Assembly (NCBI GenBank): GCA_017404795.1
Contig: JAFRBR010000004.1
Location: 1 to 64,000, forward strand
Origin: Candidatus Saccharimonadota bacterium
GTDB lineage: Bacteria > Patescibacteriota > Saccharimonadia > Saccharimonadales > Saccharimonadaceae
Length of the DNA: 64,000 bases
Direction of reading: 5' to 3'
Below are positions 6,160 to 34,013 of this stretch, in pieces. Below the pieces are notes generated by a model. It was not told the origin of the DNA. It ran no database searches and saw only the letters and a program-made list of their open reading frames with translations. How positions within the stretch are numbered: the first letter of the stretch is position 1; the number at the start of each line of letters is the position of its first letter. The translations under genes and the position numbers were made by a program.

Positions 6160-7561
6160 AAGTCACCATCAAGGCCCTAGAGTCAATCGACCGCAAATTC
6201 TCTAGTGCTACAGTCACAACGATCAAAAGCCCAGTACCCGAAATTGACAACCCGATTGGTGCCCCAGTTAGCACGATGAAAATGTAATCAGTAATAAACG
6301 GAATCATCGCCACAAACCCTAAAGCCAACGCGCCAAAGAGATCTAATCGATTCACTACTTTACTGAGATATTTTGAAGTCGCCAACCCCGGGCGCACTCC
6401 CTCAATAAATCCACCTTGTTTTTGTAAGTTATTGGCAATCTCCTTAGTATTAAAGATAATCGAAGTGTAGAAATAAGTGAACAAAAATACCAAGAGGAAA
6501 TACATCGCCGGATACACAAACCACTGCCCCGTAATCCCATCTGGATAAATCGCCGAAAAATTACTCGCCGAAGGCGCCGAAAAAGTCGCCACCAGCCCCG
6601 CCCCTACCTCGCTGGTAGGATCAACCGACATCATCACCTGCCCCACTAGTGCCGGCAACGACAAGAAAGCCGTCGCAAAAATCACCGGAATCACCCCGGC
6701 TGCAATAATTTTAATCGGCAAAATTGACTTAATTCCTCCGTAAGACGAATTCCCATGCACTCGTTTAGCGTAGTTTACCGTAATAATTCTCTGACCCTCG
6801 TTCAACTTGACCAAGAGATACACCACCCCCACCATTGCAATCACAAATCCGAGCACAATCCAGAACACCACTGGGTCTACCGGGAGCTCCAACCAGCCAA
6901 ATAGATTCAGAGTTCCATTACTAGTGTTAAACATCGCGCTCCCAAGCGCCGCCATCGTGGTCGGTAATTGCGAAATAATCGACGCAAAAATCATCATTGA
7001 GATACCATTACCAATCCCCTGCTCAGTGATTAATTCGCCCATCCACATCAAAATCATCGAGCCGGCCGTCATCGCCGTTACCGAAAGAGTCCAATCAGCA
7101 ATCGTGGGCGTAAAATCAGTTGCGATATTCCCCGAAATCGTCGACTGATACAGGATAAAGATATAAGCTACTGATTGCACGATTGCTAGCGGTACCGTCA
7201 AAATCCGCGTCCATTGGTTAATCTTCTTACGTCCTGCACCGCCATCATTAGATAACTCCTCTAGCCTCGGAATCGCCTTAGTCAAGAGCTGCACCACGAT
7301 AGAACTGGTAATGTAAGGCCCAAGACCTACCAAGATAATACTAAACGAGGCCAACCCACCACCCGAGATCAAATTCAGAAACGACGAAAAGTCCGATTTG
7401 TCTAGTAAATTCGAAACAGCTTCCTTAAAGGTCGATGCATCCCCCATCGGCACCGGAATCTGCGCTAGCAACCGATACGCCACAATAATACCAAGAATAA
7501 TCCCGAATCTCTTCAGCATATCTTTATTCTTCAATGATTTGAAAATAGTCTTGAAATGCAT
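6125..7561 (-). CDS. secY: Protein translocase subunit SecY
   Basis: Channel of the Sec translocon. The 478 residues show ten hydrophobic segments and family blocks: RLLAQIPVPMGD near residue 30, GLGPYITSSIVVQLL, the motif MWMGELITEQGIGNGISM, and a C-terminal IEGVRPGLATSKYL. In most bacteria secY sits in the spc operon after rplO. Here it stands between the sortase and rpoC, with its own leader. Confidence 0.97.
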   Translation of the reverse strand: MHFKTIFKSLKNKDMLKRFGIILGIIVAYRLLAQIPVPMGDASTFKEAVSNLLDKSDFSSFLNLISGGGLASFSIILVGLGPYITSSIVVQLLTKAIPRLEELSNDGGAGRKKINQWTRILTVPLAIVQSVAYIFILYQSTISGNIATDFTPTIADWTLSVTAMTAGSMILMWMGELITEQGIGNGISMMIFASIISQLPTTMAALGSAMFNTSNGTLNLFGWLELPVDPVVFWIVLGFVIAMVGVVYLLVKLNEGQRIITVNYAKRVHGNSSYGGIKSILPIKIIAAGVIPVIFATAFLSLPALVGQVMMSVDPTSEVGAGLVATFSAPSASNFSAIYPDGITGQWFVYPAMYFLLVFLFTYFYTSIIFNTKEIANNLQKQGGFIEGVRPGLATSKYLSKVVNRLDLFGALALGFVAMIPFITDYIFIVLTGAPIGLSISGTGLLIVVTVALENLRSIDSRALMVTYDDFGDDEIED

Positions 7562-31906: not shown

Positions 31907-31934
31907 TTGCAAAAATCCAAAAATGTGATAATAT
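31907..31934 (+). promoter_or_regulatory. Promoter of the RiPP locus
   Basis: TTGCAA (31907-31912), a 16-nt spacer ending TGA, and TAATAT (31929-31934). An imperfect copy of the -35 region (TTGCAAAAATC) lies 38 bases upstream at 31869. Confidence 0.65.
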
Positions 31935-32014
31935 TTAGTCAGAGTAAACCTAGTATAATCATGCAACAAAGAATGTAGATATAGGGTACTAGTAATTTAA
32001 GGGAAGGTGAAGCA

Positions 32015-33073
32015 ATGATGGAGAAGCTATACGATTTCAAAGCCAAACCAACATCTTTATGGCTAACCGTCAATCGCAGCTGTAATTTTCGCTGCAAATG
32101 GTGTTATGCAGAGTGCGCTGGGTTTAAAAGTAGCGATGACATGCCATTAATAATGGCAAAAAGAATTGCAAACATCGTACACGATACGGAAGTTAAGCAT
32201 ATCACTCTTATAGGAGGTGAACCAACCCTATGGCCATCACTATTTAAGTTCAATGATTACTGTAAAACTTTACCAATCAACGTAGGCATGGTAACCAACG
32301 CATGTTTATTTGGTAATGATGAGTTTTGGTCACGTTTTCTTAAAAACCCATTCAAAAGCTTAGGTATATCTGTTAAAGGCATAAATGAAAAGCAGTTCGC
32401 GGAAACAGTAGGCACGAGCAACCTTTATTCAGAAACCTTACTAGGTATAAAACGTCTTTTGAATTATTATCCAAACAAGGGCGTAAGCGTGGTTTACAGT
32501 AATCTCGTCTCACCAGAAGAAGTAGAAGAGATTACAGAACGTTCACACGAAATGGGCGCAAAATCATTCCAACTGAGCAGCTGCTCCGTGACGCTAGACG
32601 ATCAGGGATACAACAGCGACTATAGTTTGCAAATCGAGCAATTCGTAGATGGTCTAATACAAGTATATCCGCGACTACATGAGCTCTACGATGGAAACAT
32701 TCTGATTGAACCAAGATTACCACTATGCGTTTTTCCTGCTAGCTTCCTAAAGAAAGTTAGGGAACGCAAGCAGCTCCTCAATGTATGCCATGTACAAAAT
32801 CGTAGTGGTATAGTGTTTGACACAGATGGGAGTATACTACCATGTAATAGCATGGTAGGCATAAAAATCGGAAAGCTCGATGAAGATTTTAGCACCGGCG
32901 AAGAATTGTTGACATTTCTCAATAATTCACGTCTAATCGATGATTATAGAGAGATGCTTCGATACCCTTCAGACGAGTGTCTCCAATGTAAGCTAAATGA
33001 TATCTGCCGTGGCGGCTGCATTCAGAATTGGTTAGCCCTTGAACCGAAAATCTGTCATGCTTTTCACGAGTAG
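32015..33073 (+). CDS. Radical SAM/SPASM peptide maturase
   Basis: Predicted to modify the adjacent Cys-rich peptide. The 352 residues have the radical SAM cluster C23-x3-C27-x2-C30 in NRSCNFRCKWC, the SAM-binding GGEP (TLIGGEPTLWP), and a C-terminal SPASM domain with CxxCx5CxxxC (ECLQCKLNDICRGGCIQNW) plus further Cys residues (ILPCN, KICHAF) for auxiliary clusters. Such enzymes form thioether or C-C links in sactipeptides, ranthipeptides and related products. AAGGTGA precedes two adjacent ATGs (32015 and 32018). It is encoded on the plus strand, against its neighbours, which suggests acquisition. The exact modification cannot be read from sequence. Confidence 0.9.
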   Translation: MMEKLYDFKAKPTSLWLTVNRSCNFRCKWCYAECAGFKSSDDMPLIMAKRIANIVHDTEVKHITLIGGEPTLWPSLFKFNDYCKTLPINVGMVTNACLFGNDEFWSRFLKNPFKSLGISVKGINEKQFAETVGTSNLYSETLLGIKRLLNYYPNKGVSVVYSNLVSPEEVEEITERSHEMGAKSFQLSSCSVTLDDQGYNSDYSLQIEQFVDGLIQVYPRLHELYDGNILIEPRLPLCVFPASFLKKVRERKQLLNVCHVQNRSGIVFDTDGSILPCNSMVGIKIGKLDEDFSTGEELLTFLNNSRLIDDYREMLRYPSDECLQCKLNDICRGGCIQNWLALEPKICHAFHE

Positions 33074-33097
33074 TCACAACGAAAGGAGGTGAGAGAT

Positions 33098-33262
33098 ATG
33101 AAAGATTTTATCGCTCGTTTAAAGAAGGTTGGTTCAACAGAAGTTTTCTCCATTATTGACACTCGCAAAAACATCAACGCAGGCATGGACTGCAATGCCT
33201 GCAGCGCATGCGATTGTGCGTGTAGCGATTGTTCAGGCGGAAACTGCAGCAATTGCAACTAA
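33098..33262 (+). CDS. Cysteine-rich RiPP precursor peptide
   Basis: A 54-residue peptide. Leader: MKDFIARLKKVGSTEVFSII, then DTRKNINAGM. The last 24 residues hold eight cysteines (32, 35, 38, 40, 42, 45, 50, 53) spaced by small or acidic residues: DCNACSACDCACSDCSGGNC, then SNCN. The ribosome site AAAGGAGGTGA is a perfect anti-SD match, implying heavy translation. It starts 24 bases after the radical SAM stop and is followed by a terminator (33273-33305). A metal-binding peptide such as a small metallothionein is the main alternative, but the maturase neighbour favours a modified peptide. Confidence 0.85.
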   Translation: MKDFIARLKKVGSTEVFSIIDTRKNINAGMDCNACSACDCACSDCSGGNCSNCN

Positions 33263-33272
33263 CCTTCCAACG

Positions 33273-33305
33273 CCCTCAAGAGGTTTTGTCTTCTTGGGGG
33301 TTTTT
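33273..33305 (+). terminator. Terminator of the RiPP operon
   Basis: CCCTCAAGA pairs with TCTTGGGGG (one G-U) across a 10-base loop, then TTTTT. The T tract merges into the extended -10 of the next gene. Confidence 0.8.
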
Positions 33306-33313
33306 GCTATAAT
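33306..33313 (+). promoter_or_regulatory. Extended -10 of the HExxH gene
   Basis: TGCTATAAT-type box starting in the terminator T tract (TG at 33305-33306, TATAAT 33308-33313), seven bases before the ATG at 33321. Confidence 0.6.
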
Positions 33314-33320
33314 TAGAATC

Positions 33321-34013
33321 ATGAAATACAGGTATAAAATTATATTAGATAAAGAACGAGATGCTTGGAATTGGTTCGATGCAAGCCAAAAACCGTCATT
33401 CCAGGGATGCAGTTGGCGTAACTTCTTGCACAACCAAGATTTAGAGTTTTTTGACAACATCGTAAAACTACCCCCACAAAACGCAAAACAAAAAATCAAT
33501 CATTATCTAACCGAAAAATACAACACCAACAAAAATCTATTCGTAGAACGAACAAAACTGATCGATGAAAAACTGGACGAAAAATTCCTATCCGCTTGTA
33601 AATGGCTTGAAAAGACCACGGGTCACCCATTGTTTTTTCATAATTACATAATTTACCTGACTACTTTTCCGCGAAGTCCATACGACGCGGAAAATGGTTC
33701 ATTTTTTATCAATATCTATAAGCAAAATGGACTTATAAACGTATTTCTGCACGAAGGATTGCACTTTCAGTTCATCAACTATTGGCGCAATAACAAAAAA
33801 ACACTAGTATCACAAATGTCAAAAGATAAATTTGAAACTTTAAAAGAAGCCTTGACCGTAATAATCGACGAAGACGCCGTCCCACCCGCAGATTATCCAG
33901 ATAAGGGCTATATAGCCAGTCACCAAAAAATCCGTGAGTCTCTACATGCAGAATGGAAAAAAACACATAATTTTGACGCGCTAACAGAGTACGGGGTTAA
34001 ACTCCTTGAATAA
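33321..34013 (+). CDS. Putative HExxH zinc metallopeptidase next to the RiPP operon
   Basis: The 230 residues show no family I recognise, but contain HEGLH (144-148) in LINVFLHEGLHFQFINYW, the zinc-metallopeptidase motif, with a possible third ligand in KEALT (E176). There is no signal peptide, so it should act in the cytoplasm. The start is fixed by the -10 box seven bases upstream, although the frame is open further into the precursor gene. Location suggests leader removal or another role with the peptide; that is inference. It could equally be an unrelated DUF2268-like protein. Confidence 0.7.
   Translation: MKYRYKIILDKERDAWNWFDASQKPSFQGCSWRNFLHNQDLEFFDNIVKLPPQNAKQKINHYLTEKYNTNKNLFVERTKLIDEKLDEKFLSACKWLEKTTGHPLFFHNYIIYLTTFPRSPYDAENGSFFINIYKQNGLINVFLHEGLHFQFINYWRNNKKTLVSQMSKDKFETLKEALTVIIDEDAVPPADYPDKGYIASHQKIRESLHAEWKKTHNFDALTEYGVKLLE

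What the first reader, a model, noticed from the sequence alone, without database searches (positions are those of the whole stretch)
31907..33305. Compact RiPP locus: SPASM radical SAM enzyme with an eight-cysteine precursor
A radical SAM protein with CxxxCxxC and a full CxxCx5CxxxC SPASM block is followed 24 bases later by a 54-residue peptide with eight cysteines in its last 24 residues, a perfect AAAGGAGGTGA ribosome site and a terminator. The two are on the plus strand inside a minus-strand region. The core (C-x2-C-x2-C-x-C-x-C-x2-C-x4-C-x2-C) does not match a class I can name. In an epibiotic bacterium with almost no biosynthesis, this could be a bacteriocin or host-interaction peptide.
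Basis: partly seen in the sequence, partly recalled or inferred. Interest (0 to 1): 0.82.

Follow-up and report, generated by a model that had tools for sequence, protein, structure and literature searches.

The report
Cysteine-peptide maturation cassette in Patescibacteria
A tiny parasitic-lineage bacterium carries a small, mobile set of genes that very probably makes a chemically altered cysteine-rich peptide, and the same set turns up scattered across at least six classes of these ultra-small bacteria (and in one phage-like contig), although what the peptide does is unknown.

Summary
A 352-aa radical SAM/SPASM enzyme (32015-33073) is followed 24 nt later by a 54-aa peptide with eight C-terminal cysteines (33098-33262), a near-perfect ribosome site and a terminator. 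In all 13 full-length maturase homologues examined (the window, 11 other Patescibacteria genomes in at least six classes, and one phage-like contig), a short cysteine-containing ORF lies close to the maturase gene; 12 of 13 have four or more Cys. An HExxH gene is present in 11 of 13. Such ORFs are rare elsewhere (3 in 191 kb). Part of the leaders share a motif beyond composition, and the precursor is under purifying selection. No curated family names the three proteins. I conclude this is an undescribed radical-SAM RiPP family, sporadic and apparently mobile. Thioether cross-linking is likeliest but inferred. The HExxH protein is either a leader peptidase or an alpha-ketoglutarate-HExxH-type oxidase. 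Function is open. Prior art: graspetide RiPPs are already predicted in CPR bacteria.

The parts
32015..33073 (+). Radical SAM/SPASM peptide maturase, 352 aa, no N-terminal extension (radical SAM motif starts at residue 23, so no room for a fused RRE domain)
   Evidence: closest solved structures by profile: SuiB 5v1q, SkfB, CteB 5wgg, PqqE, anSME
33083..33093 (+). Near-perfect Shine-Dalgarno AAAGGAGGTGA of the precursor, conserved in most cassettes
33098..33262 (+). Precursor peptide, 54 aa: leader MKDFIARLKKVGSTEVFSIIDTRKNINAGMD (residues 1-31), core with eight Cys (residues 32-54)
   Evidence: orthologue in L012 shares GMDCxACSACDCAC
33272..33301 (+). Intrinsic terminator after the precursor
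   Evidence: (-19.2 kcal/mol, z -3.34); L012 has one in the same place (-20.0, z -4.9)
33308..33313 (+). TATAAT promoter element just after the terminator, 7 nt before the ATG of the third gene (probably a leaderless transcript); same arrangement in L012 (TATAAT 7290-7295, ATG 7302)
33321..34013 (+). HExxH (zincin-like) protein, 230 aa: HEGLH at residues 144-148, conserved Glu176, later DxGYxxHxxxR; candidate leader peptidase or tailoring enzyme
   Evidence: no Pfam/NCBIfam/PHROG/PDB hit for the window protein

Best explanation
A ribosomally made, post-translationally modified peptide (RiPP) cassette of a family not yet described. Shown: the maturase gene, the strongly initiated precursor and an HExxH gene travel together; the precursor has a leader with few or no cysteines and a cysteine-rich C-terminal core; precursor and HExxH gene are under purifying selection in a close pair of genomes. 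Inferred: the leader (helical start, then L..TG..P...G) docks directly on the radical SAM/SPASM enzyme, which has no RRE domain; the enzyme abstracts hydrogen atoms from residues between or beside the core cysteines and closes several Cys-S to carbon thioether links (2 Da lost each); the zinc-type HExxH protein then removes the leader, or less likely adds a second modification; the small cross-linked product leaves the cell by an unlinked route and acts in competition or contact with other bacteria, including the host cell. The confidence given is for the RiPP cassette claim; for thioether chemistry I would say about 0.5, for the HExxH protein as leader peptidase about 0.6, and for an antibacterial or host-directed role about 0.4.
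For: Linkage in 13 of 13 full-length homologues from at least six Patescibacteria classes and one phage-like contig, with HExxH in 11 of 13. The gene order varies (maturase-peptide-HExxH; peptide-HExxH-maturase; divergent peptide), so the linkage is not one frozen operon. Background of Cys-rich short ORFs with a ribosome site is 3 per 191 kb, against 10 of 12 cassettes passing the same filter; chance about 1e-11 by a simple Poisson estimate. Leave-one-out leader profiles with the cysteine core removed beat at least 499 of 500 shuffles for 7 of 13 precursors, the window's included. Precursor: 4 synonymous, 0 non-synonymous changes between G473 and G082 (neutral chance 0.002). Same cassette in two genomic sites in one genus: beside pheS here, between a cysteine desulfurase and mnmA in L012. 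Maturase profile is nearest to peptide-modifying SPASM enzymes: SuiB, SkfB, CteB, and the window enzyme to anSME and PapB, all far below family cut-offs.
Against: The chemistry is not shown: no acceptor residue or Cys spacing is conserved across the family, one precursor has only 3 Cys (G680) and two have 4. Leader jackknife fails for six of the 13 precursors. G542 and the phage-like contig lack an HExxH neighbour, and HExxH homologues stand without a maturase beside them in G069 and G119. In G082 the maturase is deleted in two places, one removing the first radical SAM cysteines, yet the peptide is intact, so the modified product is dispensable there or this is very recent decay or assembly error. 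No exporter or immunity gene is linked in the window.
Confidence: 0.8

Rival explanations
1. The third protein is not a protease but an alpha-ketoglutarate/iron HExxH enzyme that hydroxylates or oxidatively cleaves the precursor, as in ChlH, PflC and PosC, so the cassette makes a doubly modified RiPP.
For: One member (L034, G978) matches TIGR04267 weakly, 15.2 bits. HExxH-fold RiPP enzymes once annotated as peptidases proved to be oxidases, and they resemble zincins (PMC12636437).
Against: Score far below the cut-off of 40, only one member. Both HExxH subgroups keep a Glu downstream of the motif (27 or 17 residues after it), as expected for zinc gluzincins. Other weak hits are SprT-like, DUF5700 zinc peptidase and the YydH/LiaK maturation protease.
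Confidence: 0.25
2. The peptide is a metal- or cluster-binding small protein (a metallothionein- or bufferin-like chelator), and the maturase modifies it only to tune binding, or makes a peptide-derived cofactor in the manner of PQQ or mycofactocin.
For: Dense CxC/CxxC pairs without a fixed acceptor pattern; very strong ribosome sites suggest high abundance; maturase, short peptide and metallopeptidase is also the minimal PQQ/mycofactocin plan (general knowledge of those pathways).
Against: No metal transporter, regulator or user enzyme is linked in the window; core sequences vary too much for a cofactor; the distribution is sporadic (3 of 174 genomes of the genus), unlike a housekeeping cofactor.
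Confidence: 0.2
3. The peptide is a chance or unrelated small ORF beside a solitary radical SAM enzyme with another substrate.
For: The window peptide alone matches no known family.
Against: Recurs in 13 of 13 homologues with mostly strong ribosome sites and, in part, a common leader; 0 of 4 changes non-synonymous.
Confidence: 0.03
4. The cassette is a variant of the CPR graspetide loci described earlier, with an ATP-grasp ligase elsewhere in the genome.
For: PMC8939145 reports ATP-grasp RiPP loci in CPR bacteria, some with SPASM maturases and zincin peptidases. G723 has an ORF that looks by eye like an ATP-grasp ligase and a second SPASM cassette close by.
Against: A search of the window's genome with the G723 ORF found nothing (a weak negative, single query). 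No such ORF was seen beside most other cassettes (one more in G833). The core lacks the Thr/Asp pattern given for Branch 1 and is built of Cys.
Confidence: 0.07

Closest known systems
Ranthipeptides (PapA/PapB, CteA/CteB, SCIFF)
   Same: Short precursor with leader and Cys-rich C-terminal core beside a SPASM radical SAM maturase; PapB is the second-best curated family for the window enzyme (62.7 bits); CteB (5wgg) is among the solved relatives.
   Different: Far below the PapB cut-off of 340; no conserved CX3[DE] (absent in 3 of 13); no room for an RRE domain; an HExxH partner.
Sactipeptides (SkfB, AlbA, StsB maturases)
   Same: SPASM maturase; Cys-containing core; SkfB (6efn) is the second solved relative of the family profile.
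   Different: Scores an order of magnitude below curated cut-offs; linkage type unknown.
FibroRumin Cys-rich radical-SAM RiPPs (TIGR04135)
   Same: The only curated precursor family touched: G669 core, 13.9 bits; also a Cys-rich short target.
   Different: Cut-off is 45 bits; no other precursor hits; no paper found.
CPR graspetide loci (PMC8939145)
   Same: RiPPs of Patescibacteria, sometimes with SPASM enzymes and zincin peptidases.
   Different: Defined by an ATP-grasp ligase and Thr/Asp cores; no homologue of the G723 ORF found in the window's genome.
ChlB/ChlH, PflC/PosC alpha-ketoglutarate HExxH RiPP enzymes (TIGR04267)
   Different: Only one distant member reaches 15 bits against 40; the others do not match.
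PQQ and mycofactocin cassettes
   Same: Short peptide, SPASM enzyme and metallopeptidase as a minimal set.
   Different: No PqqD/MftB-like chaperone seen, Cys-based core, sporadic distribution.

Membership tests
Radical SAM SPASM enzymes | CxxxCxxC plus SPASM cysteines / TIGR04085 above cut-off | tested here: met
   PF04055 60.0 bits vs 29.5, TIGR04085 40.8 vs 27; invariant in 12 aligned homologues except the last Cys, which only window and L012 keep
RiPP (general) | Precursor gene close to the modifying enzyme across diverged genomes | tested here: met
   13 of 13 full-length homologues
RiPP (general) | Shared leader separate from a variable core | tested here: met
   7 of 13 leaders significant in leave-one-out test, window included; six not
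RiPP (general) | Demonstrated covalent modification | not testable with these tools
   needs mass spectrometry
Ranthipeptides | PapB-type maturase above curated cut-off | tested here: not met
   62.7 vs 340 bits
Ranthipeptides | CX3[DE] cross-link motifs in the core | tested here: inconclusive
   two in the window core, none in three family members
Ranthipeptides | Thioether to a non-alpha carbon | not testable with these tools
   needs MS/NMR
Sactipeptides | Maturase in StsB/SkfB/AlbA families | tested here: not met
   StsB 47.3 vs 625 bits
FibroRumin RiPPs | Target peptide matches TIGR04135 | tested here: not met
   best 13.9 vs 45 bits, one member only
Graspetides | ATP-grasp ligase with the locus | tested here: inconclusive
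   no match to the ORF from G723 in the window's genome; single-query negative, and that ORF was taken for an ATP-grasp ligase by eye only
alpha-KG HExxH peptide hydroxylases | TIGR04267 match | tested here: not met
   only L034, 15.2 vs 40 bits; window protein none
Zincin/gluzincin metallopeptidases | HExxH plus downstream Glu ligand | tested here: met
   HExxH invariant in 13; Glu invariant within each of two subgroups, which align to each other (Prob 94.5, E 7.5e-8)
Zincin/gluzincin metallopeptidases | Zincin fold | tested here: inconclusive
   model from three sequences has pLDDT 40 and cannot be used

The most novel reading that the evidence does not exclude
A new RiPP class of the Patescibacteria in which a compact RRE-less SPASM enzyme makes a dense set of cross-links of a type not yet described in CxC/CxxC cores, and the partner HExxH protein carries out a second chemical step; the product serves contact with or competition for bacterial hosts, and the cassette moves between these bacteria and their phages.
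Probability: 0.2. Interest if true: 0.85.

Novelty: new variant of a known kind. Interest (0 to 1): 0.6.

Why it matters
Patescibacteria live on other bacteria with minimal genomes and almost no biosynthesis, so genes kept or gained for peptide tailoring point to something used against, or with, other cells. The cassette is small enough (maturase plus 54-aa peptide) to express whole. A defined family of diverse precursors sharing one enzyme type makes it possible to test directly whether these bacteria make specialised peptides, and whether the HExxH partner is a peptidase or an oxidase.

Tried and rejected
Single-protein pattern scans of genome contigs and viral contigs found nothing; alignments found what they missed. 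Plasmid and phage collections: only generic 22-28% radical SAM hits at protein level and no DNA match. A viral scan with the HExxH alignment found nothing. Chance-ORF reading rejected. CX3D as the family rule rejected. The first-found G082 'maturase' is a remnant with 120-bp and about 423-bp deletions relative to L012, not a shorter enzyme. The G615 hit lies at a contig end and was not counted. Of the other IMG/VR hits, L036 and L037 were looked at and show no cassette; the rest match only parts of the query at 23-51% identity and were not examined. The idea that the HExxH gene is strictly part of the cassette was weakened by lone copies in G069 and G119.

Full report
What is there. The window is 64 kb of a 692-kb genome (94% complete) whose nearest named relatives are Candidatus Saccharibacteria (same genus). 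A terminator follows (-19.2 kcal/mol, z -3.3). Its TATAAT lies 7 nt before the ATG, just past the terminator, so it is probably read as a leaderless transcript; the orthologous locus L012 has the same layout.

Related loci. In 174 genomes of the genus only three carry the maturase: this one, G473 (L012/L014, a sheep-jejunum Saccharibacterium, 55% identical) and G082 (L003/L013, roe-deer jejunum). In both relatives the same three genes lie between a cysteine desulfurase and mnmA, whereas here they lie beside pheS: one cassette, two sites. A profile of window plus L012 then found distant homologues in other classes of the phylum (7 of 380 genomes including the window's own) and a wider profile found more (6 of 188 genomes of one class). 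The classes of G680, G723, G669 and G542 each hold one. Counting the window's own class and that of G699, this makes at least six classes.

Every full-length homologue has a short cysteine-containing ORF close by. Thirteen are in hand: window, G473, G542, G699, G723, G669, G680, G842, G947, G833, G975, G978 and the IMG/VR contig L035. The ORFs have 41-71 residues and 3-9 cysteines. Ten of the 13 cassettes listed (the window, 11 other genomes and the G082 remnant) have a ribosome site with a run of 8 or more matches to AAAGGAGGTGAT or better, against 4 of 91 background genes scored generously. Outside cassettes, short Cys-rich ORFs with a ribosome site occur 3 times in 191 kb, and one of these three is itself a second peptide beside another radical SAM gene in G723. 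Eleven of 13 loci also have an HExxH gene; G542 and L035 do not. Gene order differs between loci, so this is repeated association, not one inherited block.

Are the peptides one family? Core sequences cannot be aligned across the set, as is usual for RiPP cores. Leaders, with the cysteine core removed, were tested by leave-one-out profiles, near-duplicates also left out: 7 of 13, the window among them, beat at least 499 of 500 shuffles of themselves; six do not. The common pattern is a hydrophobic start then TG..P...P.G. The window and G473 peptides share GMDCxACSACDCAC. Between G473 and G082 the precursor has four synonymous and no non-synonymous changes (chance 0.002), and the HExxH gene has pN/pS about 0.14. 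In G082 the maturase has lost 120 bp including its start and first cysteines, and about 423 bp more, in frame: a recent loss or an assembly fault.

The enzyme. Twenty-seven positions are invariant in 12 homologues, including the three radical SAM cysteines, six SPASM cysteines, IGGE and W339. The seventh SPASM cysteine (C347) is kept only in window and L012, so the second auxiliary cluster probably has an open or different ligand in the rest (inference). The radical SAM motif begins at residue 23, so there is no fused RRE domain. No curated family fits: the best for the window are anSME (64.7 of 349 bits) and PapB (62.7 of 340); family-wide, the best solved relative is SuiB. Hence the reaction cannot be read off. 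Thioether formation is the most economical guess for a Cys-rich core, but Cys spacing and possible acceptors vary and the CX3[DE] rule of PapA is absent in three members (PapB described in PMC9413430).

The HExxH protein. Two subgroups keep HExxH and a later Glu (27 or 17 residues after the motif), and align to each other around the motif (Prob 94.5, E 7.5e-8). That is what zinc gluzincins look like, and a leader peptidase is the natural role. A caution: HExxH proteins in RiPP clusters have turned out to be alpha-ketoglutarate oxidases, some of which also cut peptide bonds (PMC12636437), and one member here has a weak match to that family. Lone copies in G069 and G119 show that the gene can live without a maturase beside it.

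Known or new. RiPPs in this phylum are not unheard of: graspetide loci in CPR bacteria were reported in PMC8939145, some with SPASM enzymes and zincin peptidases, and for several of these no precursor could be named. The present family has no ATP-grasp partner detected in the window's genome (weak negative) and no match in NCBIfam, Pfam or PHROGs beyond generic radical SAM domains. No paper in the library describes it, but the library is not complete. I therefore call it a new variant of a known kind: a new radical-SAM RiPP family rather than a new principle.

What stays open: whether the precursor is modified at all (strongly expected), how, what removes the leader, how the product gets out, and what it is for. 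None of the activity claims (bacteriocin, host contact, metal binding) has direct evidence.

Noticed in passing
L025:2067-4633 (G723); L034:3392-3529 and L107:8380-10641 (G978); L105:182-1504 (G833): A second, different SPASM-type radical SAM enzyme (GeoRSP-like in G723; starts ..LKSPL.VQ.E) occurs near three cassettes. In G723 and G978 it comes with a short peptide sharing CYDC.YNCEEC and an HExxH gene of about 300 aa; ORFs that look by eye like ATP-grasp ligases lie nearby in G723 and G833. These could be precursors missing from the CPR graspetide 'Branch 2' loci of PMC8939145.
   Followed up: partly
L035:3953-5268 (IMGVR_UViG_3300047523_000011): A 44-kb contig with a Sak4-like phage recombinase (phrog_124) carries a maturase homologue (36%) overlapping a Cys peptide with the TTGIP leader, no HExxH: possible phage carriage.
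   Followed up: partly
L024:4758-13459 (G699): Here the cassette sits in a longer row with a C39-like peptidase, an M16 peptidase and an MMPL transporter: candidates for processing and export.
   Followed up: partly
L003:4907-5464 (G082): Maturase remnant with two in-frame deletions beside an intact precursor and HExxH gene.
   Followed up: yes
L010:1513-3959 (G119): HExxH homologue without a maturase, directly after an ABC transporter gene on the same strand.
   Followed up: no
window 33308-33321: TATAAT 7 nt before the ATG of the third gene, just after the terminator of the precursor; conserved in L012; suggests a leaderless mRNA.
   Followed up: partly
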